Shown here: in pieces, positions 5,930 to 63,132 of the stretch
How positions within the stretch are numbered: position 1 is the first letter of the stretch
Layout: each line of letters opens with the position of its first letter
Assembly (NCBI RefSeq): GCF_019649055.1
Contig: NW_026570310.1
Span: 310,001 to 374,000 of the forward strand
Length of the DNA stretch: 64,000 bases
Reading direction: 5' to 3'
From: Paramacrobiotus metropolitanus
Lineage: Eukaryota > Tardigrada > Eutardigrada > Parachela > Macrobiotidae
Made by a program: the position numbers and the translations under genes
The notes under the pieces: model-generated
The model's database searches: none
Told to the model about the DNA's origin: nothing
What the model saw: the letters and a program-made list of their open reading frames with translations, nothing else

Positions 5930-6620
5930 TCGTAAGCTTTTTGGAGCATATACAGTGTTAGATATTTTTCGTAATAATTATGAAATCAGCTGTTTTAATT
6001 TGTACAGAAATTACATGTTCGAACAAAAATTTATTTTCTAGTGTAGATATTTAATACTGAACGCTCCTCAGAGCATGTGCGTTGTTGGATATATTTGTAA
6101 TAATTATGTTATCAGTTTTTTTATTTTTTTTCGCAAATTACACGTTAAACAAAAATTCTAACCTGTAGTGTAGATTTTAAATACTTTACGCTCCTCGGAG
6201 CATATGCGGTGTTGGATATTTTTGTATAATTATGTAATCAACATTGTTATTTATACGCATCTCAGATTTTTAAACAAAAATCAAATTGGTAGTGTAGATG
6301 TTTAATACTGTACGCTCCTCGGGGCAGGTTCGATGTTAGATATTTTTGTATTAATTATGTAATCAACTTTTTTATTTGTACGAAAATTAAATGTTTAAAC
6401 AGAAATCTAGTCGGTAGTGTAGTTGTTTAATACTGTATGCTCCTCGGAACATGTTACGTGTTAGATATTTTTTGTAATAATTATGTAATCAATTTTTTAT
6501 TTTTACGCTAATTACATGCTTCAGCAGAAATGTTTACTGTAGTATGGATATTTAATACTGTACGCTCGTTTGAGCATGTACGGTGTCGAATGTTTTCTTA
6601 ATAAGTACTTTCAGTTTTTG
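5930..6620. repeat. Satellite-like tandem repeat, about 125-bp period
   Basis: About five and a half diverged copies of an AT-rich unit lie head to tail. The anchor TAATACTGTACGCTCCTCGG recurs, with its ACGCTC core near 6061, 6188, 6312, 6437 and 6562. Spacing is 124-127 bases. Each anchor is followed by a GTTAGATATTTTTGTAATAATTATGT-like stretch with substitutions. No coding frame runs through the array. Confidence 0.85.
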
Positions 6621-10893: not shown

Positions 10894-11568
10894 TTACTTG
10901 CTTTTCAAATAAAAGTCATGGAGATCTTGAGGTTCTAAATAAGCAACAATTTTTAACACTTCTCCCGACAATTCCTCGGTTAACTTGTCTGCCTTCTCTT
11001 TCTGGGTAAAAGTCTTTCCTAACTCGTCCAAAATGTCGAAAACGCCAAGCAGTTCTTTATAATATGTGGGCAAACTTTCATCAGCCTGAAACTTTCTTCG
11101 GTTTATTACCGTGAGCTGATGTTCAAGATATCCCGGAGGTCGAAACTGATTTAACAAAAGTGTTTTCAGATCATTCCATTCTATACCATCAGGCACTTCT
11201 GCCCTTTTGCTCCACGCTGACGCTACCTCTCTCAGATAAAGCGGTAATCGTTTAAGCATTTGCGTCCTCGTCCATCCCTGGGCCTTAGACGTTACTTCAA
11301 AGTCTCCTAAAAACACTTCAATATCTTCATTTGCATTATCCGAGAATGTCGTTGGCGCTATTAGTGGCGGTCCTTTAGGCGCACTAGTTAACGCGTCTTC
11401 AAGACTTTTCGCAAAGCGAGCTTGATTCAAATTAATCAAGCATACATTATATGAGGTATGAAACTGACTTTTAGACGGTTTTTGAGATCCGAACAGGTCA
11501 TGAAAACCGCAAACTGAACTACCTTGCTGTCGTGAGCTGCAGCAGTATAGTATTTTGTTGCTGCGCAT
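10894..11568 (-). pseudogene. Retrotransposon Gag fragment, family related to 44-45 kb copy
   Basis: About 175 residues of a Gag capsid-type protein are open on the minus strand, from about 11430 down to a stop at 10894. The alpha-helical pattern is typical of LTR-element Gag: EVTSKAQGW, LYLREVASAWSKR, LLNQFRPPGY, then TYYKELL...LDELG and KADKLTEELSG. The AQGW, FRPPG and KAD.L..LSG blocks recur in the Gag fossil at 43.95-45.03 kb, so both belong to one family. The first 50 residues of the open frame look unrelated, so the true start is probably lost. No zinc knuckle, protease or RT follows, so it is a truncated copy. Confidence 0.7.
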
Positions 11569-11806
11569 TCGGTTGACTCAATTGAAGGTATATCTGAATC
11601 CATGCAGCCAGTGTACAGACCACAGTGAATAAGGCCGAGACGGATATTCGTTTGTAATACAACGTTCACGCACTGAATACTATGTCGGGCGCAATGCGGA
11701 AAAAAGCACAACATGTGGACGGCCGTCGGTATATGAAATAACCTTCTCGGAACAGTATTGACAAAGTATCTGGTAATGTGTGTGAAGGCAAACCAGTTCC
11801 TTAACA

Positions 11807-13753: not shown

Positions 13754-15003
13754 TCAGGTTTGTGCGTACATTTGCTGAAAATTTCTCAGAGCGCAGAGAA
13801 CCTTATGACGATTTACTTGCCAGCAGCGCTGTTGTAAATCGGTGGTGCGCTTCAGCGCACCTCCACTTGGCCACACCACACGTATGAAAGGTTGGTACGA
13901 TGCACCGTCACCTCGCACCCCTCCGAGAAACGGCTTGCAATCTTTGCTGATTGTCGTCTTCCTTTTAGCGTGAAAAAATGCGAATCTCTTTCGCTCCAAT
14001 GTCACCGTGGACAGCAGCGTAGTGTCGCATGCATCAGGTGCATAGTACACATTTTTCCGTCGACGTCCAGTGACGTCGTCGACGACATTTTTCCAGTGTT
14101 TTCCGTCGACGGACATCTCGATATCGATCGTGCCAATATGGGTGGCCTGGATACACGCGTTGCTGCCAACCACAAAATGCTTGGGAACGTCTAGCTTAAC
14201 TAGAGTTTTGAACCAGGTATCCTTATTCGTGATATGGTCGCCTGCCCCACTATCAGCGACGATCGCATCGGTATTTCCGGCCACATGCATAGCTGAAACC
14301 ATTAAGGATTCCTTCCTATAACCGTGACCGGACTTGTCCTGTCTCTTGTTGGTGCCTGGATCCCATTTTCGCTTTGACCAACAATCTGCTTGTTTGTGAC
14401 CGACTTTCACGCAGTTACGGCAATTCCCCGTAAACTTTTTCGTTCCGCTCGGTTGCCGCTTACCTTTAGTGTACAGCGACTCACAAGCTGGACTTGACTC
14501 GCTTCCTTCGCTTTGTCCCTTCATCGTCTTTTCCGCTAAGAGCCGCTTCTCCCGGAACGTGGACATTTTTGGATCAGACCGGCCATCATGTTCCACGACG
14601 ACACAAAAGGGGCGTACAGTTTGGGCAAGCAAGCAGGCGTCTTCCCGATCAACCAAGATTTGGCAACTTTCTCCGGCTTCCCGCACGCATGCATCTTGGC
14701 CGCTAGAACATACAATGATGCCATGAATGTATTTGCGTCGTCTACCTCATTCCAATTGACTACGAAAAACCCGGTCATCGCCGACAACAAGTCGTTAGCA
14801 GTCTTCGGCTCTTTCAGTTCCTTAATCCTCTTTAGAATCTCAGCGGACGTCTTGCAGTCTCGACACTGATTGAAGGTGGGATCACCCACAGTAGCACGCA
14901 ATATACTTCTGGCTTTTCCATCGGCAGCTGTCCACTTCAGGTGGTGCTCATGCGCTGCTTTATCCGTTACCGAATCTAGGGGCATCGTCAGTGTCCCATT
15001 CAC
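13754..15003 (-). pseudogene. Ty1/copia gag-protease fossil
   Basis: The minus-strand reading starts with ATG at 15003. The first frame (15003 to about 14580) is a copia-type Gag of the UBN2 kind, with a helical AEILKRIKELKEPKTANDLL segment. A one-base frame break near 14575-14595 moves the good reading to the frame ending at 13754, where STFREKRLLAEK continues the Gag. Next comes a CCHC zinc knuckle, CRNCVKVGHKQADC, in the canonical CX2CX4HX4C form. It is followed by an aspartic protease with the catalytic string ADSGAGDHIT. The protease C-terminal region fades out near 13880. No integrase or RT follows downstream, so only the 5' part of the element is left. Confidence 0.85.
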
Positions 15004-48459: not shown

Positions 48460-49444
48460 GGTCAGTAACGCAATGTTTTTTCAGTGAATTACTGTGCACG
48501 ATTTAACATGACCGTTCGTGATTGTCATCCTACCTGATTCTGTTCCGCCGTTACATCGGTAAGTTATGATGTACCATTCCGTAAAGTTTTATTCCAGTGA
48601 TCAGTTTGTAGAATTTTCCCAATTCCGTCCGTAACAATAAATGTACCGAAAACAATAAAAAACAAAACGTACAAAATAATTAAAAGAACTTTTTCGCATT
48701 TTTGCTCGACATTGCGACCCAAGCACGTCATATGCTGCAAGTTAGCCATTGTGAAGGCGATAAAGTACGAGTACGACCGTAGTCCTTAAATAGACATTTA
48801 TGTGCAGGCTGCCGAACGACAGATGAGTTTGGAAGATCGCCTAAAGACATTTGACAAATGGCCTTTGTCGTACGTTTCACCGCAGTCCCTTGCGGAAGCT
48901 GGTTTCATCTACACAGGAGAAGGGGACGAAGTAAAGTGCGTGCTGTGCCGGATGGTCCATTTCAATTGGATGATCGGTGACCTGCCGAAGTTTGAGCACC
49001 GTCGCATCAGTCCCGAATGCCCGTTCGCAGCTCTAGTGGCGGATGGTGAGGTGTATGTTCCGGCCATGAAGGAATACCGCGATCGATTTGCCACGTACGT
49101 TAAATGGCCGGGGCAAGTCATTAGCCAGCGCCCAATGGAAATGGCCAATGCCGGGTTTTTTTTTCATGGAGGGAATGTGGGATTAGGTGCAGTGCTTTTG
49201 TTGCGGCCGTAAACTGATGCAGTGGACACGCGATGACGACCCGTGGATCGAGCACGCCAAATATGAACCGCGGTGTGAATCTTTATTGGAGAAGAAAGGC
49301 CTGCAATTCATTCAGGAGGTTCGACGGTTTCACAACATGGATAAACTGAAGTGGGCAGGTAGCCTGCGCAAGAATCGAATGGATTTTTTGGTGGCGCTTG
49401 CCAGGGACGAAGGTTTGCATTACACGTACCTAATAAAGGTGACG
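48460..49444 (+). pseudogene. BIR-repeat (IAP-like) gene cut by an LTR insertion
   Basis: Exon 1 (about 48460-48558) is untranslated, with two short uORFs. The 249-base intron ends TTATGTGCAG at 48807. Coding starts at ATG 48823 (MSLEDRLKTFDKWP). The first BIR is complete: W, AEAGFIYTGEGDEVKCVLC (CX2C), W, then FEHRRISPEC (HX6C). A second BIR begins YRDRFATYVKWPGQVISQ, but a small indel near 49160-49190, around a nine-T run, moves its zinc-binding half (CFCCGRKLMQW, then EHAKYEPRC) to another frame. The protein then stops making sense where the retrotransposon LTR begins (about 49445). BIR domains bind caspases or chromosomal passenger partners. No RING is visible, being lost or never present. 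An opposite-strand 61-codon frame with a membrane segment (48564-48749) lies in the intron. Confidence 0.8.
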
Positions 49445-50009
49445 TGTGGGAGTAGGATCACACGCCGGTTGTACATACTGATGCTGACTGTCCGCCTTCC
49501 ACCTGCAACACAACGAATAATCTAGTCAATCTCTTCTGTGATTTGTTGTCCTCTTTTACTAGCGATGTATATGATGTCATAACGCGAAGTCTATATAAGT
49601 TTTGGTTGTCACTAATATCGGAATTAGTAGTCTGAGATTTACTTCTGAGACTGCTTCTAATTACAATTTCCTAGCGTTGTGAACTGTGTTGTGAATTGGA
49701 CAAAGAGACAGCAATACTTGTTCCTACTGAAGTGCATAGTTGTTCCCGGATTATCGCTTAGTATACAGGTTTGCTCGTGACACAATCGTCCTAGCTCTTG
49801 CCGATCCTCACAGGACTTACGACCGGAGATTGTAGTTGGACCTTCGTTAGGGATTCCTGACTCGTGTTTCTGAATCGTTCGTCAGTTCTCCACCATAGAT
49901 CTTCTGTTACAGTTTGAGAGTACGAGTGCCTACCGACTGACAATTACAGGCGTGGAAGAGTAAAGATTGTTCATGGAGCCTTAAACGGCGTGAACGCTTA
50001 TACACGACA
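49445..50009 (+). repeat. 5' LTR (left edge approximate)
   Basis: The right edge is set by TACACGACA|TGGCGCC, LTR end followed by primer binding site. The left edge is uncertain. TGTGGGAGTAGG at 49445 coincides with the loss of BIR coding sense, but TGTCCGCC at 49489 would pair better with the terminal GACA. A TATATAAG box at about 49592 fits the U3 promoter. Confidence 0.6.
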
Positions 50010-50026
50010 TGGCGCCCACCGGTGTC
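50010..50026 (+). promoter_or_regulatory. Primer binding site
   Basis: TGGCGCCCACCGGTGTC starts exactly after the LTR end CGACA. The initial TGG complements the CCA of a tRNA 3' end, as in nearly all LTR elements. The TGGCGCC start resembles Lys- or Asp-type sites; the exact primer tRNA is not determined. Confidence 0.7.
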
Positions 50027-50800: not shown

Positions 50801-53800
50801 ATGTCAGGTGGTACAGTCGCAAAGACTCGCCCGCCACCACGTAAAGTACCGGAGGACAGGGTAATAATTGGTGCTTACGAAGGAGCACAAGCCCAGACCA
50901 GATTCCGGTTCAAAACTAAGGATATACCGTTGGGTTTAATGTATTTAGCTCTGAATGTTGAACCACCAGAAGCGCTAGAGGCATTCTGTGGAAAGGAGTG
51001 GGTTGAATACCAGGAAATCAAACGATTTTTAAATTCAAGAATAAAGCAACCCAAATATTATAAGACGTGGGGAAACCACGAGGAGTGTATTCCAGAAGCT
51101 TACCTGGATATCACAGACGAACAGTTTGAAAAGGCGGTCAATGATGCGTATAACTGGAAAGCAGGCTATATGGAAGATTTGGGGAAGCGCAGGCAAGCAG
51201 CGCAAGCAGCTCATTTAGCAGCCAAATCATCTGGAAAAACCCCAAAAAAGCAAGCCGCAAATGAGAGAGTCACGCGAGGTACTAAGGAGAAAAATCCAGC
51301 ACAGCCGTCTGGTGCGATATTGGATGAGCCCATATCGGAAACTCCAAGCGTGGCCGAGAGCCAGACAGAACCCCAGTCGTCCCAGTCGGACAATAACTTG
51401 ATAGCATTGTCGGCTGCGGATAAAGTGGATATTTCCGAGGGATCTGAAACAAGAGCAAGTAAAAGCATTCGCGGTGGAACGATGACATTCCATCCGGCAC
51501 AGATGAAACTTCACAGTTTTGTGTCCGAAAAGGACTTCGAACAACCTGATGAGGACTTCCTGGCTCAAGCTATGGAAGTAGATGAACAACTTGCAGCGGC
51601 TGAAACGGATCAGGATGTGGGGTTAATTGCACGGAAAACCATGCCGGTGTTGCTTCAGGGCCTTCGTACTTTAATTGCGTCTACAAAATCAAAAGTAGAT
51701 GAAATGGGTAATACTATGTCGTTAGACGCCCGCGTCGATGCAGAACGAAATGAAAAGCTGAAATTCCAAAACGATTTCAATGAAATGCGTATTAAATTTG
51801 AAAATGAACAAATAGAAAATGATAGATTGGCCAACGAAATACGCATTGCGAATGATAATCTGCATGGTTTAAGACAAGCCAACAGAAATGCGGAGGCCGC
51901 GTTTAATGCAATTAAAGATGAGCGCGATACTTTAACTGACACGAATCGTAAATTGGAAAAACAGTTGGAAGACGCCCAGAGAGATTTTTCAAATGCGAAA
52001 GCTACGATTGATAGTCTCCGTGCTCAACCAACACCGGACACAGCAAAACAAATTGCGGATCTAGACCAAAAACTGAATAAAGCACTGAGGGATTTGTCCG
52101 CCGAAAAAGATGCGCATAAAGTCACAAATAAAAAACTGACTGATGAGCAGAATTTGTCCACAAAACTCACCAAAGATCTGGACGACGAAAAGAAGAGGGC
52201 TAAAGACGCTGAGGAATCCCTCCAACGGGATCTCACGCACGCGAGAGTCCAGCTCAATAACAAGTCTTCAGTCGGCCCGATGCATATTCCTAAGGAAAAG
52301 GATGATTTGTCCCAAAAGGAAATTGAAAGGTTACAGGGCCTGTTGAGCACAGAGCGCGAAAATGTACAGAAGGCTCAAAAGGAATTAAATGATTTGAAAG
52401 GTGATAAAAGATGTGGTAATTGCGAGAAAGCGATTCAAGCGAAGAATAAAGCACAAGCTGACGCATACGAAAAATCTGAAGCGTGCAACCGGCTCTATGC
52501 GGAAAATGCACAGTGCCGAAAAGAATGGCACGAAAAACATGATCAGCTTACCAAGATGGAAGTGGATTTTAGGGAAGCATGCAATGAGCTCCTTCAGCTT
52601 CGAAATCCGGATACTGCTCTTGGTGGCGGTGAGAGACACTTTCAAAGGGAAGCGCCGGTGGCAACAGGAGACGTATTATGTCCTCCCGCTTTTACACCAT
52701 TTAATCCCCAAACTTTCTCGTCATACGTGGATCAGCCTTTAGCTACTGGCAGTAATCCGGCTGGTATCTTGCGGAGGCCTAGACAGGAGTCGCGAGTCGA
52801 ATTTTCGGAGGCTCACTCCATGCCACGCTCGTCTTCAGAGAGTCAGATTCCCAGGGAAACGGTCTCATCTAAACAAAAGAAAAACAAACCAACAGATTTA
52901 CGCCAAGAGGTATTCAAAAGAATATCTGACGATACTAGCCGCCAGATGCGCGGAACAGAAAACAGGGATAGTTCCGACACAGAAAATGAACTGATGGATG
53001 ATGCCCTGATGGAGGATGAACACCGTCGCCCTAGCAGCACAGCCAGTAATGAGTCGGCTTCTAGAAATCCTCAGCTGGAGGAATGGCTGATTAAGCAGAC
53101 CCAAATCTCGGATAGAACGACGCTTACACAGGAAAGCGTGGTCGAACTTTTATCGAAATTTGCGGAAAAGGACAGCGATAAAACAGTGAGAGGCATGAAG
53201 TTACTTGCCTTTGATGATGCTCACCCGGAAAAAATTCAAAGATGGCTCATGAATGTTGAACAATGTAGAGCCACGAATAACTGGAATGATGAAACAACGT
53301 GTCGCAGAGTAATTGGTGCATTCACCGGTCCGTCCTTTCAATGGTTTGAAAAATTCTGGAAAGACAATAAAGGCAAATCATGGTCTGATTTCTTTAAGCC
53401 CGCTATTGTAGAGCACTTTAACGGCTCTTTGTCTAAAGCCGATATTCGTCGAAAAATGAATAATCGCAAATTGGAGTTTTATGAGCCTGTCCGTGCTTAC
53501 CTGGATAGCTTTCTCCCGTGGTTTGAAGAATTAAAAGTATCTGATGAGGAGCAAGTCGAAGCACTCCTGGAGGGCGTGCAGGAGCACAGACCGGCGTGGT
53601 TTCGTGAAATCTACAATGCAGCGCCTAAAAATTATACCGAATTTGAAAAGAAACTACAAGAGTGTGAGAAGCTATGGAAGCGTATGAATAAAGATAAAAA
53701 GGCTCCCGAGTCAACTCAGAGAAATGCTCCTGCTGAACCCAGAAGCGCCGGCAATAATAATAATAATAATTCGAATTATGAAAATCGAGGCGGCCGCGGT

Positions 53801-55813
53801 GGCTCGTCTCAGAGAGGAAATTATTATTCAAACCGGGGAGGCCGCGGAAATTATGGCAATAATCGCGGTGGATACTCCCGCTCGTACACGGAAACGGTGA
53901 TTCCGCAGCCGCAGAATACGGTGGCTCCAATCCAACCTGTCCTGAATGTTCCCCAGCCGCAGTTTGTTCCAGTTCCGGTGTATTCACAGCCACCATTCGT
54001 TGAACAACACCCGGTACAATTTGCGCAGACCTTCTCACAGCCAATTCCTATGCAGGCTCCTATGCCTGTTCCTATGCAGATGATGAATCCAATGATACCG
54101 GTTATGCAGCCGCAGTTTCAACAACCGGTACAGAATTTCGATCCGCAGTACCAACAGGATGGCCCTGCGAATAACAACAAATATAACGGTGGCAATAATC
54201 GTGGAAATTACCGAAATAATAATAATAATTATCGCGGACGAGGTGGCTTGAACAACAATAATAACCGCCAGCAAAATCAGAACCAAAATTATCGTCCGAA
54301 TCAGCAGGCCGGTAGTCAGCCTCCGTTCGATGAACGAAATATCCTGAAAGATAAATGGCGAACAAATCGCGGAGTCGAGATTTGCTTCCGCTGTCATGGT
54401 CTGCATCCGGCTGCAGGCTGCACGAATCAGTTTGTCCTGCCTCGACAGTATGAGCCGTCTGCAGAATTGTTGGCTCGATACAACAACCCGCAGCAACAAA
54501 TTAATATGATGGAGTTGGATTTACCTGCCGGTTTGTCTTCTCCGACGCCCCAGTGCAACAAAATGGAAGTCCAAGATTTTTCGCAGTATCCTCTAGCGGA
54601 TCACGTGTGTCTGTTGCCGACGCTTGTTGCCCAGGCTTGGTATTCTGTAATCGACATTAACTATCAGAAAGTAAAAACCATGCTGGATACTGGTTCTAGC
54701 ATTTCTGTTATGTCTTTAAAAATGGCTAAAGATTTAAAATTAAATATTCATCGTTGCCCGGATCACATTAAAGGCAGGGTTGTACATACGGCTTACCAGG
54801 GAAGACAGTTAATCGAGCCGCTCTCGGTAGTGGTCACCATCCATGAGTTCGGGATGGCTTTTGAGCACGCAGTCCTTGTGAGTTCCACTTTTGATAGGGA
54901 CCACGTTGTTTTAGGTTTAGACTTTTTAGCTACAAAGCCTTTTATTTTAGATATGAATACTATGACGTGGCGTCTCTCGCGTAGACAGCCTAATGCTCCG
55001 GCATTCTTTCGTCGCGAAACTCACCTGATGTCGGATGTTATCCGCTCGCACGATTTTGATCCGCTAATTCCAGTGGGAGTTAAGCCGTCACCCGCAATTC
55101 CCGCGTTGATGCTAACAGAGCGCATTGGTGTCGCTAAAGAAGCAAAATTTGTACCATATGAGTCAGCTCACTTAATTCTAGCAAAGGCTGATCCAGAAAT
55201 CTGTATTCTGCATTTACAAAAGGCTAAACAGGAGTGGCCGCGTCCAGTCCCGTCGCCACCAGTGACAAAAGTGGCTGATGCCCTGGTGAAAACGGAAGTT
55301 AAAGAAATTACACCAGTTCACGTAGCTCCGATTAAAAAGGGATCTGATCAGCGTGATGAGGAATTTGTGCGAAGTGTAGTCCAGGAAATGATCAGGCAAT
55401 ACTTGCCGAGAGCGGCCTCGGTAGCAGAGGAACCGGTCAAACCTGTAATTAAAAAGGAAATTAAGACGGAGAAAAACCCTGAACCAAGTCAAGTTCGTGG
55501 GGGAGGCGGTGAGACAATTGTAAATAGTATGCAGTCAAGTTCGCGGGGGAGAGAACAGGCGTCTTCCCAGCCGCCAATTAAAAAGGAAAAAGTTTCACAA
55601 CCGTCCCCGGCAAGCAGTTCAAGTACCTCGTCTTCGGCATCGGTTAGTCCCGTGCCTAATTCTGGCTCCAGTCAAGTTCGTGGGGGTGACGACTCCCTGC
55701 CAACTTCCGATTCAAATTTCGTCAGTGGACGCAGTGCTGAAGCAACATCCTGCGGCGAAGTATCTCTACATGGGCGTTTTAGAGAAATCAGCAAAGGTTG
55801 TCGAATGTCTTAG
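50801..55813 (+). CDS. gag-pro: ORF1: coiled-coil Gag, zinc knuckle and aspartic protease
   Basis: ATG at 50801 opens a 1670-residue protein, very long for a Gag. Residues about 300-600 are a predicted long coiled coil (many LxxE/K heptads, for example LEKQLEDAQRDFSNAKATID). The capsid region is about 757-967, with MKLLAFDDAHPEKIQRWLMN and FQWFEKFWKD. Two Asn/Arg/Gly-rich RNA-binding tracts (about 980-1030 and 1120-1175) flank a Pro/Gln/Met-rich linker. A variant zinc knuckle, CFRCHGLHPAAGC (CX2CX3HX4C), is at about 1195. The protease follows: MLDTGSS with catalytic Asp about 1296, and VVLGLDFLA. The last 270 residues are a disordered Lys/Ser/Pro tail with several psi-K-x-E motifs (VKTE, IKKE, IKTE). 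Gag packages the RNA and the protease matures the polyproteins. ORF2 follows in another frame, with overlap. Confidence 0.9.
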   Translation: MSGGTVAKTRPPPRKVPEDRVIIGAYEGAQAQTRFRFKTKDIPLGLMYLALNVEPPEALEAFCGKEWVEYQEIKRFLNSRIKQPKYYKTWGNHEECIPEAYLDITDEQFEKAVNDAYNWKAGYMEDLGKRRQAAQAAHLAAKSSGKTPKKQAANERVTRGTKEKNPAQPSGAILDEPISETPSVAESQTEPQSSQSDNNLIALSAADKVDISEGSETRASKSIRGGTMTFHPAQMKLHSFVSEKDFEQPDEDFLAQAMEVDEQLAAAETDQDVGLIARKTMPVLLQGLRTLIASTKSKVDEMGNTMSLDARVDAERNEKLKFQNDFNEMRIKFENEQIENDRLANEIRIANDNLHGLRQANRNAEAAFNAIKDERDTLTDTNRKLEKQLEDAQRDFSNAKATIDSLRAQPTPDTAKQIADLDQKLNKALRDLSAEKDAHKVTNKKLTDEQNLSTKLTKDLDDEKKRAKDAEESLQRDLTHARVQLNNKSSVGPMHIPKEKDDLSQKEIERLQGLLSTERENVQKAQKELNDLKGDKRCGNCEKAIQAKNKAQADAYEKSEACNRLYAENAQCRKEWHEKHDQLTKMEVDFREACNELLQLRNPDTALGGGERHFQREAPVATGDVLCPPAFTPFNPQTFSSYVDQPLATGSNPAGILRRPRQESRVEFSEAHSMPRSSSESQIPRETVSSKQKKNKPTDLRQEVFKRISDDTSRQMRGTENRDSSDTENELMDDALMEDEHRRPSSTASNESASRNPQLEEWLIKQTQISDRTTLTQESVVELLSKFAEKDSDKTVRGMKLLAFDDAHPEKIQRWLMNVEQCRATNNWNDETTCRRVIGAFTGPSFQWFEKFWKDNKGKSWSDFFKPAIVEHFNGSLSKADIRRKMNNRKLEFYEPVRAYLDSFLPWFEELKVSDEEQVEALLEGVQEHRPAWFREIYNAAPKNYTEFEKKLQECEKLWKRMNKDKKAPESTQRNAPAEPRSAGNNNNNNSNYENRGGRGGSSQRGNYYSNRGGRGNYGNNRGGYSRSYTETVIPQPQNTVAPIQPVLNVPQPQFVPVPVYSQPPFVEQHPVQFAQTFSQPIPMQAPMPVPMQMMNPMIPVMQPQFQQPVQNFDPQYQQDGPANNNKYNGGNNRGNYRNNNNNYRGRGGLNNNNNRQQNQNQNYRPNQQAGSQPPFDERNILKDKWRTNRGVEICFRCHGLHPAAGCTNQFVLPRQYEPSAELLARYNNPQQQINMMELDLPAGLSSPTPQCNKMEVQDFSQYPLADHVCLLPTLVAQAWYSVIDINYQKVKTMLDTGSSISVMSLKMAKDLKLNIHRCPDHIKGRVVHTAYQGRQLIEPLSVVVTIHEFGMAFEHAVLVSSTFDRDHVVLGLDFLATKPFILDMNTMTWRLSRRQPNAPAFFRRETHLMSDVIRSHDFDPLIPVGVKPSPAIPALMLTERIGVAKEAKFVPYESAHLILAKADPEICILHLQKAKQEWPRPVPSPPVTKVADALVKTEVKEITPVHVAPIKKGSDQRDEEFVRSVVQEMIRQYLPRAASVAEEPVKPVIKKEIKTEKNPEPSQVRGGGGETIVNSMQSSSRGREQASSQPPIKKEKVSQPSPASSSSTSSSASVSPVPNSGSSQVRGGDDSLPTSDSNFVSGRSAEATSCGEVSLHGRFREISKGCRMS
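55487..55813 (+). promoter_or_regulatory. ORF1/ORF2 overlap with a thrice-repeated 17-mer: recoding region candidate
   Basis: ORF2's frame is open from 55524 although ORF1 only stops at 55811-55813. ORF2 lies in the +1 (or -2) register relative to ORF1. AGTCAAGTTCGYGGGGG occurs at 55487-55503, 55533-55549 and 55670-55686. Copies 1 and 3 read SQVRGG in ORF1's frame, while copy 2 reads the same peptide in ORF2's frame. The G runs and repeats are a plausible shift site. The only ORF2 start-like codon in the overlap is a GTG at 55680, so frameshifting is likelier than independent initiation. Confidence 0.5.
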
Positions 55814-58800
55814 CATGGATAATAAACTGCTAAATGTCATACCTGTTGAACGCGATCGCAGAGACGTTGATGAAGTCCATGACTATCCGTCTTATATGGC
55901 ACGTAATCCAGAATTGAAGAAGTGGATGACGCCGATGGATAGGCCACAGGATAAACAGTTGTTTCCATCGGAACAACGTTTCAGAGATCCACAGTTTTGG
56001 CGCGAAACGCAACAGCAGTGTGTTGATAGCCGGATGTGGTACAAGATGTATAAAAAGCCGTCGCATGCTAATAAAAATTTTACGAAGTACGAAATTAATC
56101 GGTTTGTTATCTGCGAAGGTATATTGTGCAGAGTACCCGACCATAGTGGCGCTTGTCCACGGATTTACGTACCGCACCAATGGCGACAGAAATTAATTGC
56201 CTGCTTCCACGAAATCTTAATTCATAAGCAAGCGTATGGCCGGCATGAAAAACTATATCCGTACTTAGTGAAGTTATTTTACTGGCCTGACTGTATTATT
56301 GAAATTGAACGTTACGAAAGGAACTGCGATGTATGTCGAAACTCGATTAATGACCGTCGGCATTTTGAAACGATTAAAAGAAATGAACAGTTGGCCGCAC
56401 AGAAAGCTACACGAAAACGTAAGGTTACCTTTTCCGTGGACAACCCGGCGCCAGCAGGTGAATTCGAAAACGGTAGCTTTATTCCCGCTGACGGCATGAA
56501 GCCTATCAATATCGGCCCGTGTCCGACCTCCTACGAAGATAAACAGGCGGAGAAGCAAAGAGAAATAAACTCCCAATTAATTGGTAACTCACCGCAGGAG
56601 CATAAGTTGATCAGTGACCAAATGTCCGATTTGCTTCCTCCGACAGTCAGGGCATCTTACAACTCCCCTGTAGATGTCGACATCAACGAACAGTGGGAAA
56701 TCTGGAACGAAATTCAGAAACGGAAGGCATTGAGTGAATCTGCAGCTGCTAATCCAGCACAACCCACCGTGGGAAATTACGAACCATCACCGGAAGGTTC
56801 GGGAAGGAGTTCTCCCAGGCGTAAAAAGTCTAGTTACAGCCGTAGAATTAGACGCGAATACGCAGAAAGAGAAGCTGCAACGCAATTGTCCGCTGAGACA
56901 GTGCAGCCGGCACCGGCGCTACAACAACCGACGGCTAAAAACTTGCCAAAACGGTCACAGGACGTCCGTGAATCCACAGAGATCCCGGCATGTGTTTATA
57001 CGAAGGATGCTATTGAATTAGCATATAAAGAAGCTCACCTGAAACAAGCCCAAGCGCAGACAGAAATTAATTCGTTAGAACATGATATTTACCGCTTCGA
57101 GCCAGAACCTGGCCCGATCGACTGCTTTAAAATGGAGCTTTTCCCGGCCTCACCGGTGATAATTCAGCCCCATTCACAGGGAATTATTCGCGCTACGACG
57201 TCTATGTCCGATGAGCAATTCATGGAATTTCAGGATGAGTATCTATATACTCAACTTTTTCTCTATGAAGGAAAAATTCCCGAATCAAACAAAAATGCGG
57301 TATTACTGGACGGCGTTTTAACGCTAAACGAATACGGTAATTGCCGAGTCTGTGTAGTTAATGTTTCGGACAAGCCGCTGGTTTTAAACGAAGAAACGAA
57401 CCTTGGCGAAGTTGCGCTTGTTGATGCTGTGTACCAAATGGATTCTCCGGAGTTCCAGGAGAATTGTCAGGAAGCCATTGGTGGCATTCCCAGTGAGGAG
57501 GAAGGTGTCCCGGCACCGGAGAAAATTAACGAATGTGTGGCCATGCAGTTGCCGCCACCCGCCGTCAGTGCTGTTGATCCTGAAACAGAGGAAACTTTCG
57601 CAAAAATTAAAGTGGGAAATATTTGCCCCAGTAAGGATGAATTGAAAGCTATATTTTATCAGGCAAAATCAGTCTTACCGACTAAAGCGCGTCCTGTGGG
57701 ATGCTGTACCATTTATGAGCACTCCGTGGATACAGGCACAAGTTTGCCGGTTAGAACTCCTCCGTATCGTACATCGTTTGAAGATCGAAAATGGCTCCAA
57801 ACTAAAACACAGGAAATGATTAAAGACGGTATCATCGAGCCAACAAATTCGGCGTGGGGCAGTCCTATTTGCATAGTAAAGAAGAAGGATAAATCCAGGC
57901 GCTTAACCGTGGATTTTCGTAAGCTTAACGAAAGATTGATGGGCAGTAGTTACCCGCTTCCCAGGGTTGATGATATATTAAACGCCCTCGATAAAGCTAC
58001 GGTCTTTAGCAAGATTGACTTAAAGAGCGGATTTTGGCAAATAAAAATCAAACCAGAAGACCGGTGTAAAACAACGATGGTTGGTGAAGAATTCACTTTT
58101 CAATACAAAGTCTTACCTTTTGGGATGAAGGATGCGCCTTCGGCTTTCCAGCGCGCCATGGATTTGACGCTTGCAAACATGAAGTGGAGAAACGTGTTGG
58201 TTTTTATTGATGACATTATTGTCTTCAGTAAAAACCTGGCTGATCACATGCGGGACTTGCAGGAGCTCTTCTTGCGGCTCCAGGAATGCGGCTGGACCAT
58301 TAACCCTGAAAAAACAGAATTATTTGTTAATTCGATTACCTTTTTGGGTCATACGGTCGATCAGTTTGGTATAAGCACGGATCCAGAGAAGATCCAGGCG
58401 GTTAAGGAATTTGGCCCTATAAAAGACAAAAAAGACATATTACGGTTCCTAGGCATGGTTGGATATTATCGCCAATTTATTAAGAATTTTCAAGAGATTG
58501 CGGAGCCGCTTCAAAAATTAATTCCTAAAAAAGTTACCTTTGAATGGGGAACGGATCAGTGTAGGGCTGTCGAGCAGTTGAAGGAGGCCTTGGTGACGGC
58601 GCCGGTCTTGGCTCGTTATGACCCGGAGGCTTTGTCGCGTGTTGTCGTCGACGCCAGTACTATTGCTGTGGGTGCAGTCCTTATGCAATGTCCGCGGGAT
58701 AAACCGACTGATGTGCCGACGAACTGGCGTCCTATCGCGTACTTAAGCCGCAAGTTGACTGAAACACAGAAAAGGCTGTACTTCCCTACTGAGCTTGAAG

Positions 58801-59108
58801 CTTATGCGGTTATCTGTGCCTTAAAGAAGTGGAAACATTATTTGTCTGATTATCAGTTCGAAGTACAAACTGATCACCAAGCGCTGGTCTTTCTCAATAA
58901 TATGCGTGATGCCGCTGACCGCCTCGGGCGCTGGGCGTTGTATATCCAGCAATTTAACACCAAACCTGTTCACATACCTGGCAAAGAGAACGTTATTGCT
59001 GATGCCCTGAGTAGAAATCCAGGAGAGCAACCGGAACCCGACTCCGACGACTCGGATATCGAATTTGACTACAGGCAACTTACCCTTTCGCCGGCGATGC
59101 AGCGATGA
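55680..59108 (+). CDS. pol: ORF2: N-terminal HHCC-like module, reverse transcriptase and RNase H
   Basis: The frame has no early ATG; the coordinates start at a GTG, and translation probably enters by a frameshift from ORF1. Residues about 104-220 form an unexpected integrase-type zinc module: FWRETQQQC..D..MW, FVICEGILC, IYVPHQWR, then H...GRH...CDVC. A polar linker follows. At about 490-580 is the beta-rich segment usual between protease and RT (VIIQPHSQGIIRATT ... VCVVNVSDKPLVL). RT spans about 680-920: KKKDKSRRLTVDFRKLNE, IDLKSGFWQIKI, LPFGMKDAPSAFQ, and catalytic FIDDII with Asp 844/845. RNase H spans about 960-1110: VVDASTIAVGAVL, TELEAYAVICALK, VQTDHQAL and IPGKENVIADALSR, so D-E-D-D is present. 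It makes the element's cDNA. The stop overlaps the ORF3 start as ATGA. Confidence 0.93.
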   Translation: MGVTTPCQLPIQISSVDAVLKQHPAAKYLYMGVLEKSAKVVECLSMDNKLLNVIPVERDRRDVDEVHDYPSYMARNPELKKWMTPMDRPQDKQLFPSEQRFRDPQFWRETQQQCVDSRMWYKMYKKPSHANKNFTKYEINRFVICEGILCRVPDHSGACPRIYVPHQWRQKLIACFHEILIHKQAYGRHEKLYPYLVKLFYWPDCIIEIERYERNCDVCRNSINDRRHFETIKRNEQLAAQKATRKRKVTFSVDNPAPAGEFENGSFIPADGMKPINIGPCPTSYEDKQAEKQREINSQLIGNSPQEHKLISDQMSDLLPPTVRASYNSPVDVDINEQWEIWNEIQKRKALSESAAANPAQPTVGNYEPSPEGSGRSSPRRKKSSYSRRIRREYAEREAATQLSAETVQPAPALQQPTAKNLPKRSQDVRESTEIPACVYTKDAIELAYKEAHLKQAQAQTEINSLEHDIYRFEPEPGPIDCFKMELFPASPVIIQPHSQGIIRATTSMSDEQFMEFQDEYLYTQLFLYEGKIPESNKNAVLLDGVLTLNEYGNCRVCVVNVSDKPLVLNEETNLGEVALVDAVYQMDSPEFQENCQEAIGGIPSEEEGVPAPEKINECVAMQLPPPAVSAVDPETEETFAKIKVGNICPSKDELKAIFYQAKSVLPTKARPVGCCTIYEHSVDTGTSLPVRTPPYRTSFEDRKWLQTKTQEMIKDGIIEPTNSAWGSPICIVKKKDKSRRLTVDFRKLNERLMGSSYPLPRVDDILNALDKATVFSKIDLKSGFWQIKIKPEDRCKTTMVGEEFTFQYKVLPFGMKDAPSAFQRAMDLTLANMKWRNVLVFIDDIIVFSKNLADHMRDLQELFLRLQECGWTINPEKTELFVNSITFLGHTVDQFGISTDPEKIQAVKEFGPIKDKKDILRFLGMVGYYRQFIKNFQEIAEPLQKLIPKKVTFEWGTDQCRAVEQLKEALVTAPVLARYDPEALSRVVVDASTIAVGAVLMQCPRDKPTDVPTNWRPIAYLSRKLTETQKRLYFPTELEAYAVICALKKWKHYLSDYQFEVQTDHQALVFLNNMRDAADRLGRWALYIQQFNTKPVHIPGKENVIADALSRNPGEQPEPDSDDSDIEFDYRQLTLSPAMQR

Positions 59109-61363
59109 TCGAATGTTGCTTTGCGGTCTTGGAGAGAGATTATGTGGATATCCGGTTCGAAATGATGTCAGCGGAAGTGAAGGCAGTCTCCCAGGAGGAT
59201 ATGCAAGCCTTCGACGCCGATAAAGTCAAAAAGTTGATTACTGATGATAAAGCCTCACACTGGGCTGAGGAGCAGTCTCGTGACGCTCGCATTGTCCGAT
59301 GGCGATTGCTCCTAGAAAATAAAAAGGAAAAAATGTCAGAGCACGAGAAATTACATCTAAACAAATTTGTAGTGAAACAGGGAGTTGTATACTACAAGTT
59401 CGAATTAAACCGGAAGATCTATTACTGCATGTATGTACCTGTTCACTGGCGGCTTCAGTTCCTTCAGGATAACCATGATTCCCCGTTAGCGGCACACTTG
59501 GGTGTCCTGGCCACCTATAAGAGGATGTATAAATATTTTTATTGGCCCCGTATGTTCGAGTCTGTTAAAAGTTATTGTGCCTCGTGCCCGGCGTGCCTTG
59601 CACAAAATCCTCTTGCTACGGCACCGGCCGGTGCTCTCCAGTCAAATCCGACGGTTCCTCCCCGGTTAGTTTGGGCAATTGACGTTGCTCCGGCCCTCCC
59701 AACGACGGAATCTGGAAATAAAAACATAATAATCGCTGTCGATTACGGGAGCAAATATATAGTTGCGGAGGCAGTTGAGAGAAATGACGCCGCCACTTTG
59801 GCGTTGTTCTTTTATCGTCGTATCCTGACAGTCTTTGGCATGCCCGTACACATTACTTCAGACCGCGGCAGTAATTTTATGTCAGAAATGTTTCGGGAGC
59901 TTCTCGCTCTCGCTGGTGTTGCTCACGCACCGACGGCGTCAGGCCACCAGCAGGGTAATGGTCTTGTTGAAAAACGTGTAGGGGAAATCAAAAAAGCATT
60001 AGCCAAGTATGTTAATGAGCAGCAAAGTGACTGGGATATATTCCTCCCAGCACTTTGTGCGGCATTTAACAGTAAGGTTGTGGAGCGAACGTGCCGTTCA
60101 CCATTCTTCATGATGCACGGCACCAAGATGCGCTTACCGATAAATAACTTCTTGCCATTCGAAGAGGATTTCGTAATTCCCGCTCACGTATATGTACAGC
60201 AGATGCAGCGCGGTCTTGGTGAGGCCCTGGACTTGGTGAATGCAGAAGAGTTTCGCCATAAACTAAAGGACAAAATTCGCTATGACGCCAACATATCTCA
60301 CACCTCGTATAAAGCTGGAGATCAGGTTTTGGTCTACGTATTACATCGGAAAGTAGGGAAGAATCCATCCCTTATGCCTCGTTGGACTGCTGGTTGGGAG
60401 ATTGTTCGTCAGTCCGGGCCGGTTCACTACGTAGTAAAGAGTAATCGGCGTGGAAATGTTAAAACTGACACTGTACATGTCAGCCGTTTAAAGCCATATA
60501 ATTTCCGCGACGTCGATACTATTCTACAAGACGAGCACTTACCGAAATTGCTCGACTGTGTGGAGAAGGAATGCCCCGATGAATTGGTTGAGGCGCCCGC
60601 GCCGCCGCCGGTCATTCCGTCCGTTGGTTCAGCATCGTCGCGTCTTGATGCTGAGTATGCTGAATATTTGGATAATCAGATGGAGGCGGTCCCGCTTTTG
60701 AAGACCCGCTCCGGGCGTGTGCTGAAACCTGTGGAGAGATTTATTAATCAGATCAACGACAAAAAGCGTAAAAGAGACCCGTCGGTTGATGCAAAAAAGC
60801 GTATGGCTACAAATAACAGAGATCCGGCTATTCTGAATGTATCCCAGCCGGGAGGGGGCCAGCCTGAACCAGTTGCGCCGTTGGCTGGTGATTCCCCGCC
60901 CATTACCTGTAATGCGATGGAAATTGTGCCGGCGCAGCCATCGAAATCATCTCCAACTACAGTAGAGGACAGAATTCTTCCAGCCCCGGCTTGGGCACGT
61001 CCGATTGAGCAGTTCTGGCCTCAGGGTGTAATATCCGATGATGCCCTGGATAAACAGGAATTCTGGAAGTATCGACAAATGGAGTGTAGTGACATGATGT
61101 TGTGGGACGCCGTTGTTGATGGAGATTTTACTCTCGAGGAATCTGCATACGCGGCCTGGCATCTTCCTTTAGTTCTAAAAGTAAACGGCATTATTTGCCA
61201 TTATGGAGAAAAACAGGACATTGCAAAAAGAGTACCTAAAATTCTCATTCCTTATCAGTGGCGTAAAATCTCAGTTGAGTCTGTACATCGGCGGTTGTTG
61301 CATAAGTATAACAGTAATAGTACGCCGTATGACTACTTGTATAGAAGTCTTCGTCTCTTCTGA
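59105..61363 (+). CDS. int: ORF3: integrase with a C-terminal third HHCC-like module
   Basis: ATG at 59105 overlaps ORF2's TGA (ATGA), so it is read by reinitiation or a -1 shift. The N-terminal zinc domain has H124, H131 and Cys 158-164 (AHLGVLATYKRMYKYFYWP). The DDE core is WAIDVAP (D193), TSDRGSNF (D253) and NGLVEKR (E289), giving a D-X35-E spacing. A GPY/F-like C-terminal segment (AGDQVLVYVL, PRWTAGWEIV, VHVSRLKPY) follows. After a disordered linker with KKRKR basic patches, residues about 640-752 resemble the ORF2 module again (FWKYRQMECSDMMLW, VNGIICHYG, ILIPYQWRK). The frame ends in TGA at the position of the conserved Trp. After that TGA the same frame stays open to TAA at 61424-61426 and contains an ICTLC Cys pair where the module's CxxC belongs. 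Confidence 0.92.
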   Translation: MIECCFAVLERDYVDIRFEMMSAEVKAVSQEDMQAFDADKVKKLITDDKASHWAEEQSRDARIVRWRLLLENKKEKMSEHEKLHLNKFVVKQGVVYYKFELNRKIYYCMYVPVHWRLQFLQDNHDSPLAAHLGVLATYKRMYKYFYWPRMFESVKSYCASCPACLAQNPLATAPAGALQSNPTVPPRLVWAIDVAPALPTTESGNKNIIIAVDYGSKYIVAEAVERNDAATLALFFYRRILTVFGMPVHITSDRGSNFMSEMFRELLALAGVAHAPTASGHQQGNGLVEKRVGEIKKALAKYVNEQQSDWDIFLPALCAAFNSKVVERTCRSPFFMMHGTKMRLPINNFLPFEEDFVIPAHVYVQQMQRGLGEALDLVNAEEFRHKLKDKIRYDANISHTSYKAGDQVLVYVLHRKVGKNPSLMPRWTAGWEIVRQSGPVHYVVKSNRRGNVKTDTVHVSRLKPYNFRDVDTILQDEHLPKLLDCVEKECPDELVEAPAPPPVIPSVGSASSRLDAEYAEYLDNQMEAVPLLKTRSGRVLKPVERFINQINDKKRKRDPSVDAKKRMATNNRDPAILNVSQPGGGQPEPVAPLAGDSPPITCNAMEIVPAQPSKSSPTTVEDRILPAPAWARPIEQFWPQGVISDDALDKQEFWKYRQMECSDMMLWDAVVDGDFTLEESAYAAWHLPLVLKVNGIICHYGEKQDIAKRVPKILIPYQWRKISVESVHRRLLHKYNSNSTPYDYLYRSLRLF

Positions 61364-61426
61364 CCGGAAATGAGGCGTGATTGTGTTAATTTCATAAAAA
61401 TCTGTACCTTATGCAATAACGATTAA

Positions 61427-61769
61427 ACAAGCTGAGCGGCCGTCTAAATATGTACATTCCTTTTATTTTTAAATTTTACAGGGTTGAAATTTTATTCCTT
61501 AACGCATTAAATTGTTTGGAAAGTTCCCATTAAATCTGTGTGTACGTACGGATTGAGTAGTCGTATTCGTTATTGGACAGTCCGCAGTGACGTAGTCGCG
61601 TTCGTTGCTCTTTCTGCATATCAGCTGCGTAGGAAAGTTGCTCTTAGCCGGCTGCAAATGATATTCATACCTGCAAGATCAGTGTTAGTTGTTAATTCGC
61701 TTTTAGCCTCGCCCGAGTTTGCTCTTGCTTTACACTGAGTTCGTGGCTAAATTACTGTATATCGCTACA
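61427..61769. other. Spacer between ORF3 and ORF4
   Basis: This is AT-rich at the start (TTTTATTTTTAAATTTTACAG near 61460, which ends like a splice acceptor) and then GC-neutral. No complete gene is seen. If ORF4 is expressed from a spliced RNA, an acceptor such as the TTTTACAG near 61480 would serve. Confidence 0.35.
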
Positions 61770-62528
61770 ATGCATCGTCCGAAAGTGCCGTCACATCCTT
61801 CTTATCAGCATGAGGATACCACGAGTTCCTCGGAGGATTCAGTGCAGGTTTTGGCAGATGTCTTGGCCGATGTTCAGCCGCCAATGTATCCCGATCCTCA
61901 TGTTGGATGGCCTGAACCAACATTTGAATGGTCCCATCGCATGGTGGATTGTGGCCTTCGTCCGTCTCCGCACGACTACGCTCGTGGAGGAAAGAGTTAT
62001 ATTCCCCCGTCTGGTTTGATTCATAGTCCCTACAATCCGGACACCGATTATGTGGAGCTGCATCCCGAAACTCGATTGCGTTTCCGCGGCAAGATTTACC
62101 ATAATGGATCGGAGATGACGTTGGACAAATACAACCGCTTTGTTCACACTCTAGATTTGTCAAAGGACGCACATTATGCATTGTTGCGTTACCTGCGGGT
62201 GGACTTCCGCCAAGGATGGCTCATCGGGCAAATTGTTTGCGAACTCCGTCGCAAATTTGGATTATGTCCCGGGGAAACGGGAGACCATGGTGCCGTTGTT
62301 ACGCTCGTGGACGCGTATAATCAGCATATCGAGGAATTGGTTTCCAATATTGACGAGGATCACCGCTTGGAAGCAGAGCAGCGCTATTTCGATCGTTTGA
62401 ATGCAGCGGATCCGCGCTCGTCATCCCAACAACAGCAGCAATTGCAACAAACTCGTTGGCTGTTACAGAAGGATTTCGGGTTGCTGCAGCGGATCCGCTC
62501 GTCGTCCAACAACAGCACGCCGCGATGA
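61770..62528 (+). CDS. ORF4 of the giant element, unknown function
   Basis: The first ATG of the frame is at 61770 (MHRPKVPSHPSYQHED), giving 252 residues. The N-terminal 60 are acidic and Pro-rich. The centre looks folded (DTDYVELHPETRLRFRGKIY, SKDAHYALLRYLRVDFRQGW, IGQIVCELRRKFGLCPG, VVTLVDAYNQHIEELVSNID). The C-terminus is Gln/Ser-rich. A direct repeat of GCAGCGGATCCGC...TC.TC.TCC.AACAACAGCA lies at about 62403 and 62489, and the second copy is in another frame, so the end of the protein was altered by a duplication. No family is recognised, and it lacks the signal peptide or anchor expected of an Env. Base composition and strand match ORF1-3. Confidence 0.6.
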   Translation: MHRPKVPSHPSYQHEDTTSSSEDSVQVLADVLADVQPPMYPDPHVGWPEPTFEWSHRMVDCGLRPSPHDYARGGKSYIPPSGLIHSPYNPDTDYVELHPETRLRFRGKIYHNGSEMTLDKYNRFVHTLDLSKDAHYALLRYLRVDFRQGWLIGQIVCELRRKFGLCPGETGDHGAVVTLVDAYNQHIEELVSNIDEDHRLEAEQRYFDRLNAADPRSSSQQQQQLQQTRWLLQKDFGLLQRIRSSSNNSTPR

Positions 62529-63132
62529 TGATGATGATATGGGCGCTGCTGTTTAGCCGTTTCCCTTCAACACAGCCTTTAATAGCTTTTCACGTTATTG
62601 TGCCCTCTACTTCGCCATTATCTGGGGTTTTTCACGGTTTGAAATGAGTACCCTTTTCTTTCTTTGAGTTTACAAATTCGGTACAGCCTATTATCTGTCA
62701 GTTCTACAATTAGCTTTTAGTGTTGCTTTTCAATGCACAACTTCTCTATGTATTGGCTTACCGTTGTCGGCCTCGCACGATATTAAATTGGCGGTTTGGC
62801 AATAAATGGTTGAATAGTGTTTAAATCCGATTGTTTTAAATTACAATTCCCGGGAAATCCAAGCAAAACAGTACAGCTACACATAAAAGGTGTAAATATC
62901 ATTGCGTTCTGGAAAAACGTAAAGTCTACACGTTTGAACACGTAAATATTTATGTCACTGTAGCAACCGCCCGTATGTCGTGAAATGTTAGGGCAGTAGC
63001 AGTTTCAGTCTGCCAGCTGTTTCCGGTTTGCACAGCTGCAGTGTGTCAGCAGTTTTCATGTTTGGATCTGCAGCTCTCTCGTCTTTTCTCATTTACATTC
63101 TTTTCCGTTTAAATCCCTACTATTCTTTTAAA
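62529..63132. other. Spacer between ORF4 and ORF5
   Basis: A short ATG repeat (GATGATGATGATGAT) follows ORF4. The rest is AT-rich without genes. A TTG-initiated extension of ORF5 from 63028 would add a hydrophobic stretch (ALSSFLIYILF), but the ATG at 63133 has the better context. Confidence 0.4.

What the first reader, a model, noticed from the sequence alone, without database searches (positions are those of the whole stretch)
55990..61426. Three integrase-type HHCC modules in one retrotransposon
Besides the normal HHCC zinc domain at the front of integrase (59260-59610), the element carries a related module before RT (55990-56345) and a third after integrase (60980-61426). Shared landmarks in order are W..xQ...(D)...W, a G-I/V-x-C/Y strand, a P-x-x-WR string, then H..H and C-x2-C. 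The outer two are closest to each other (FWRETQQQC/FWKYRQMEC; PHQWR/PYQWR). A pol flanked by duplicated zinc modules suggests extra target-site or RNA binding, or a module swap between integrases. I know of no described element with this layout.
Basis: partly seen in the sequence, partly recalled or inferred. Interest (0 to 1): 0.9.

Follow-up and report, generated by a model that had tools for sequence, protein, structure and literature searches.

The report
Retrotransposon with three integrase zinc modules
A very large jumping element in a eukaryotic genome carries, besides the zinc-binding front end of its integrase, two extra relatives of that module placed before its reverse transcriptase and at the end of its polyprotein, and such modules persist even in sister elements in which no reverse transcriptase was found.

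Summary
The window element is a 24-kb Ty3/gypsy LTR retrotransposon (5' LTR 49440-50009; 3' LTR beyond the window). It has an integrase-type NED-HHCC module between protease and RT (M1, 55896-56390), the integrase's own (M2, 59231-59662), and a third at the end of Pol (M3, 60980-61426; this copy has a stop inside it). Eight other copies hold all three in one open frame. Profile comparisons, Pfam, a 42-row tree (M1+M3 against M2+ordinary integrases, 100/99), a modest predicted fold (best matches PFV and Ty3 integrase) and low dN/dS agree. M3 is of the M1 type, not a copy of M2.

Beyond the finding: 89 of 99 related RT places have an M1 match just upstream; of the 10 others, 2 were read and have a divergent M1. 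No comparable module was detected in 120 diverse Pol proteins. A sister family (F4) keeps gag, protease, M1 and an M3-like module under strong purifying selection, but no RT was found at 14 of 17 such places; the other three carry RT and share F4's LTRs, suggesting a non-autonomous/autonomous pair. I favour a docking or assembly role in the particle or pre-integration complex; that step is inferred, not shown.

The parts
49440..50009 (+). 5' LTR (TG...CA); its partner lies outside the window at C90:383016-383587
   Evidence: the genome search; 572-bp aligned pair with 3 mismatches; TG/CA ends and AAGG target duplication read by eye from the flanks printed
50010..50022 (+). primer-binding-site-like TGGCGCCCACCGG directly after the LTR
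   Evidence: sequence; TGGCGCCCACCG also follows the F4 LTR
50801..55813 (+). gag + aspartic protease open frame (ATG at 50801; Pfam gag-asp_proteas 7.4e-7; one CCHC-like knuckle at 54383-54421, read by eye)
55896..56390 (+). M1: extra NED-HHCC module between protease and RT; presumed zinc ligands at codons 56208, 56223, 56325, 56334
57123..57440 (+). dUTPase-like/beta segment between M1 and RT (approximate bounds; name recalled, no Pfam match here)
   Evidence: position; related segments in F1, F2, F2b, F4, F5, F6, F8
57876..58955 (+). RT and RNase H
   Evidence: Pfam RVT_1 2.1e-34, RT_RNaseH 9.2e-29
59231..59662 (+). M2: the integrase's own NED-HHCC module
   Evidence: Pfam Integrase_H2C2 3.3e-17
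59663..60496 (+). integrase catalytic core and C-terminal beta domain
   Evidence: Pfam rve 1.1e-10; below their cut-offs Integrase_p58_C 5.2e-4, SH3_Tf2-1 7.9e-4
60980..61426 (+). M3: extra NED-HHCC module at the end of Pol; stop codon at 61361-61363 before the C-x2-C pair in this copy
61707..62528 (+). open frame downstream of pol, region conserved to about 62470-62560 in many copies; no Pfam match above cut-off
   Evidence: Pfam best 0.035

Best explanation
The element belongs to a clade of large Ty3/gypsy elements whose ancestor copied the N-terminal NED-HHCC module of its own integrase to a place between protease and RT (M1). A module of the M1 type was later placed at the end of Pol (M3). 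The copies no longer serve one integrase in cis. They most likely fold around zinc like an integrase N-terminal domain and act as docking or assembly modules: they pair with integrase (NTD-to-core contacts in trans) or with each other, and so hold Gag-side proteins, RT and integrase together in the particle or pre-integration complex. Shown here: homology, order, single-frame presence, selection, persistence in F4 where no RT was found. Inferred: zinc binding, the docking partner, processing of the polyprotein, the direction M1 to M3.
Confidence: 0.45

Rival explanations
1. M1 (and perhaps M3) is a nucleic-acid-binding module that helps package or chaperone the 24-29 kb genomic RNA, supplementing a weak nucleocapsid.
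For: M1 basic, pI 7.9-9.3, in 11 of 12 rows; the window's gag shows by eye one CCHC-like knuckle and RGG stretches; M1 kept in F4 frames where no RT was found.
Against: M3 in F1/F2 is near neutral or acidic; integrase-type HHCC domains contact other integrase domains as well as DNA (established knowledge, recalled).
Confidence: 0.25
2. The extra modules are decoys that restrain integrase (copy-number control), by occupying the site of M2 in the multimer.
For: Related to M2 in sequence and, with the limits stated, in predicted fold; strong constraint.
Against: A restrainer would be expected to be lost in some expanding families; M1 matches lie upstream of 89 of 99 related RTs and in F4 elements with near-identical LTRs at C46.
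Confidence: 0.12
3. The modules are passengers: leftovers of recombination without a job.
For: M1 and M3 change faster than RT (RT 78%, M1 38% identity between L021 and L034).
Against: dN/dS 0.02-0.10 in unsaturated F1 pairs and 0.02-0.07 in F4; eight long single frames.
Confidence: 0.04
4. An assembly or nesting artefact put pieces of other elements beside this one.
For: Such things occur: among 120 Pol proteins, 11 hold modules not followed by an integrase core, each with an RNase H before the module, i.e. truncated or fused elements.
Against: M1 lies between protease and RT without an RNase H before it in F1, F2, F5, F6 and F8 loci; all three modules in one frame in 8 copies.
Confidence: 0.01

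Closest known systems
Ty3/gypsy (Metaviridae) integrase NED + HHCC domain, as in the Ty3 (7q5b) and PFV intasomes
   Same: Sequence profile, ligand pattern and, with modest scores, predicted fold; only M1 was modelled
   Different: M1 and M3 are not followed by a catalytic core and sit before RT and after the integrase C-terminus
Gmr1-like gypsy elements (integrase before RT; name recalled)
   Same: An HHCC module upstream of RT: 9 of 120 Pol proteins have a single module before RT followed by an integrase core
   Different: There the whole integrase is upstream; here the integrase stays behind RT and only its N-terminal module is extra
Burro giant gypsy elements of planarians (PMC6431247, passages read)
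   Same: Giant LTR element, huge single polyprotein, dUTPase-like segment between PR and RT, accessory ORFs
   Different: The passages mention no integrase-type zinc module before RT or after IN; Burro's BIR, BCL2, ankyrin, MATH and env-like parts were not seen in the Pfam scans of this element
Zbtb11 / GIN1 / NYNRIN host proteins (PMC5384227, passages)
   Same: Integrase-type HHCC module outside an active integrase (shown to work for Zbtb11)
   Different: Host genes, no element context
Non-autonomous LTR elements moved by a partner with the same LTRs (general kind, recalled)
   Same: F4: LTR and leader shared with RT-bearing siblings (C80, C292, C347), no RT found
   Different: F4 keeps a long selected gag-PR-M1-M3 frame

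Membership tests
Ty3/gypsy LTR retrotransposon | paired LTRs with TG...CA ends and short target duplication | tested here: met
   572-bp pair, 3 mismatches, AAGG on both sides
Ty3/gypsy LTR retrotransposon | tRNA primer site after the 5' LTR | tested here: inconclusive
   TGGCGCCCACCGG at 50010 looks like one; the matching tRNA was not sought
Ty3/gypsy LTR retrotransposon | order PR-RT-RH-IN | tested here: met
Integrase_H2C2 (PF17921), M1 | score above curated cut-off | tested here: inconclusive
   10 of 10 members match at E<=0.1, window member 19.9 bits under 25.5; L031 29.1 bits above it
Integrase_H2C2 (PF17921), M3 | score above curated cut-off | tested here: inconclusive
   6 of 8 members at E<=1, best 3.8e-4; window copy cut by its stop does not match; members' bit scores not shown
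Integrase N-terminal domain | H-x-H ... C-x2-C ligand pattern | tested here: met
   11 of 12 M1, 7 of 7 M2, 6 of 7 M3 rows (pattern); failures F6 M1 and F4 M3; L020 M3, not in that set, lacks one His
Integrase N-terminal domain | fold | tested here: inconclusive
Integrase (whole enzyme) | DDE catalytic core joined to the module | tested here: not met
   no rve next to M1 or M3
Gmr1-like | integrase core upstream of RT | tested here: not met
   rve at 59663-59944, after RT
Non-autonomous partner (F4) | lacks RT and IN, shares LTRs with an RT-bearing element | tested here: inconclusive
   no RT at 14 of 17 places, shared LTRs; 10.6 kb of the C46 element unread, 138 of 1452 RT candidates scored; IN core absent from the loci read but not surveyed across the spans
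Zinc-binding protein | bound zinc | not testable with these tools
   -

The most novel reading that the evidence does not exclude
Integrase-type HHCC modules have been turned into portable 'tickets': Gag-side proteins carrying M1/M3 dock onto a partner's integrase or RT, so that giant elements that lost RT and integrase (F4, perhaps F3 and F7) are still packaged with, and integrated by, enzymes of siblings that share their LTRs. The triple-module Pol of the window family is the autonomous end of that system.
Probability: 0.2. Interest if true: 0.82.

Novelty: new variant of a known kind. Interest (0 to 1): 0.62.

Why it matters
Domain order in Ty3/gypsy Pol is usually stable (recalled); a selected duplicate of the integrase front end outside integrase suggests that this module has a function separable from catalysis. 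A natural set of families with M1 alone, M1+M3, and M1+M3 where no RT was found makes that function testable in vitro with small purified domains, and touches how retroelement enzymes are recruited in trans.

Tried and rejected
Rejected: (1) artefact or nesting: same order in many copies. (2) Gmr1-like rearrangement: integrase core is after RT. (3) M3 as a copy of M2: tree and hhalign put it with M1. (4) neutral leftovers: dN/dS. Many more distant pairs were saturated (dS undefined or above 2) and say little; 'M3' in its rows with L034, L036 or L031 is another module picked by score and was ignored, as was 'M2' for L031.

Paper searches (PMC open library only). I saw titles and starts of abstracts of the listed papers (capped lists); none describes an integrase-type zinc module between protease and RT. 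Only PMC6431247, PMC10309623 and PMC5384227 were opened, by passages. PMC10309623 (Cer1) gives PR, RT, RH and one integrase zinc domain in the usual order.

Full report
What is there. The window lies at C90:310001-374000 of an unnamed 170-Mb eukaryotic genome. The finding sits in an LTR retrotransposon whose 5' LTR is at window 49440-50009 and whose 3' LTR is outside the window, at C90:383016-383587; the aligned 572-bp pair differs at 3 positions, the ends read TG...CA and AAGG lies on both sides. The element is therefore about 24.15 kb. A primer-site-like TGGCGCCCACCGG follows the LTR. Pol reads PR - M1 - RT - RNase H - M2 - integrase core - C-terminal domain - M3.

This copy and the others. 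Here gag-PR, M1-RT-RH and M2-IN-M3 lie in three frames, and M3 has a stop before its C-x2-C pair. Eight other places report one open-frame length at all three modules: C78 3537, C50 3444, C52 3517, C76 3538, C9 3242, C13 3610, C72 2808, C3 2123 aa. So the layout is real and the window copy is a damaged one.

Homology. HMMER profiles of each module find the other two in the 20 fetched loci; at E<=0.01 every match in their six-frame ORFs of 25 aa or more lies at a module place already known. hhalign: M1-M3 99.6% E 1e-23, M1-M2 98.5% E 1.6e-15, M2-M3 97.3% E 2.5e-11 (E-values of a one-to-one comparison, few sequences). Controls: 90 shuffled-column comparisons reach at most 22.1; 14 of 15 other-domain comparisons at most 18.1, the 15th (M2 with the IN-core cut) overlaps M2 itself. 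The tool comparison of A1 (10 M1) with A2 (8 M3) gives 99.6%, E 3.5e-24. Pfam Integrase_H2C2: 10 of 10 M1, 6 of 8 M3. M1 and M3 further share a W-x-x-P stretch upstream of the FW...Q...D...W region that the M2 rows lack.

Origin. In a 42-row tree (14 M1, 7 M2, 7 M3, and the 14 control modules scoring best with the M2 profile) the split {M1, M3} against {M2, others} has 100/99 support and M2 is one group (98/94). The F1/F2 M3 rows join F7's module with weak support (89/68), and F4 M3 is unplaced. The tree is unrooted, so 'M1 first, M3 later' rests on M1's wider spread. P-x-x-W-R occurs in 10 of 12 M1, 7 of 7 M3 and 5 of 7 M2, and in 0 of 144 modules found in 120 diverse Pol proteins (116 of which had a hit), so M1 most simply came from an integrase of this lineage. 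Among the 120, 11 proteins have a module without an integrase core behind it; in each an RNase H precedes that module, so none shows this layout (protease was seldom found by the query used there).

Spread. Identity of M1 to the window: F1 83-100%, F2/F2b 58-63%, F3 41-43%, F4/F5 37-41%, F6 31-33%, F7 34%, F8 not listed there. F1-F7 were picked by their M1 matches, so 'all have M1' would be circular. The fair count starts from RT: of 99 RT places at 53% identity or more to F5 RT (some are fragments of one element), 89 have an M1 match at 0.5-3.2 kb upstream. Of the 10 without, I had read two (C39, C57 = F8, picked by integrase) and both have a divergent M1; eight were not read. Two more distant gypsy loci (L043, L044) have RT but no M1 in the 3.8 kb read. 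M3 follows the integrase in F1 and F2; it was not detected in F5 or F6 loci.

Selection. NG86 between L019 and L021: gag CA 0.02, PR 0.01, M1 0.02, dUTPase-like 0.02, RT 0.01, RNase H 0.03, M2 0.02, IN 0.01, CHR 0.05, M3 0.10. L021-L023 gives M1 0.03, M3 0.03 with dS above 2. More distant pairs are saturated. M3 changes fastest but is constrained.

Elements without RT found. F4 loci hold gag - PR - M1 - two dUTPase-like segments - M3-like module, in single frames of 1995 and 2168 aa in L031 and L032 and broken or cut in L033, L045, L046, with only a 29-73 residue RT-like remnant. F4 has LTRs: a stretch of at least 966 bp (the query began at the edge of the locus) recurs on C46 at 100% by the tool's rounding, with 3 bases of length difference, at least 28.9 kb apart end to end, and is followed by the same TGGCGCCCACCG. 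I picked by hand 17 M1 places of the 37-41% class (F5-type places C12, C13, C22, C98, C177, C182 left out): 14 have no RT match within 25 kb, 3 do (C80, C292, C347); 12 of the 17 have an M3-like partner listed at 2.6-3.0 kb, and C2 (L033) has one in another frame. The three RT-bearing places also match the F4 LTR plus leader at 93-96%. This reads as a non-autonomous family and its autonomous siblings. In F4, M1 dN/dS is 0.02-0.07 (10 pairs) and M3 0.02-0.07 (6 pairs), against 0.21 for the stretch between them in one pair, although F4 M3 has lost the zinc ligands. Limits: 10.6 kb of the C46 element is unread, and one search scored 138 of 1452 candidates; RTs of 53% or more mostly rank above the unrelated ones at 37-43%, but two fragments (C9:48612, C76:507780) rank among or below them, so a short RT piece could have been missed.

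How it may work. Because M1, and M3 in F4, are maintained where RT was not found, their job is tied to the Gag side or to binding enzymes that come in trans. In solved intasomes the NED-HHCC part of one integrase packs on other subunits and DNA ends (established, recalled). A free copy could use the same face to dock. M3's neutral charge favours protein over nucleic acid; M1's basic charge leaves RNA/DNA binding open. That an HHCC module can work outside integrase is shown for Zbtb11 (PMC5384227, passages).

Verdict. Observation confirmed; interpretation partly right; new variant of a known kind. 

Noticed in passing
window 49440-50009 and C90:383016-383587: The element is a giant (24 kb) LTR retrotransposon; the window holds only its 5' 14.5 kb. 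The 11.6 kb behind pol has open frames on both strands; the eight scanned have no Pfam match above cut-off.
   Followed up: partly
L031-L033, L045, L046, L047; C46:267200-296061: A family of roughly 24-29 kb LTR elements with gag-PR-M1-M3 in which no RT was found, sharing LTRs with RT-bearing siblings; the C46 pair of LTRs is nearly identical.
   Followed up: partly
L038:6689-9901 (-) and 5209-6057: gag-PR-HHCC frame of 1071 aa followed about 0.6 kb later by an F4-like LTR stretch (87% over 726 bp): perhaps a minimal element.
   Followed up: no
window 61707-62528 and L039:6646-7230: Two accessory open frames share the string SPYNPD/APYNPD and look like relatives by eye.
   Followed up: no
window 48823-49161: BIR (inhibitor of apoptosis) domain, Pfam 6.2e-25, just upstream of the element's 5' LTR and outside it.
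   Followed up: no
window 13757-14746 (-) and 10897-11577 (-): Pol beta-barrel domain (PF22936, 1.8e-11) and a weak gag match (0.0051, below cut-off): other retroelement remnants.
   Followed up: no
L031 nt 4331-4774 and 5198-5503 (aa about 1253-1401 and 1542-1644 of its frame): The dUTPase-like segment between M1 and RT is doubled in F4.
   Followed up: no
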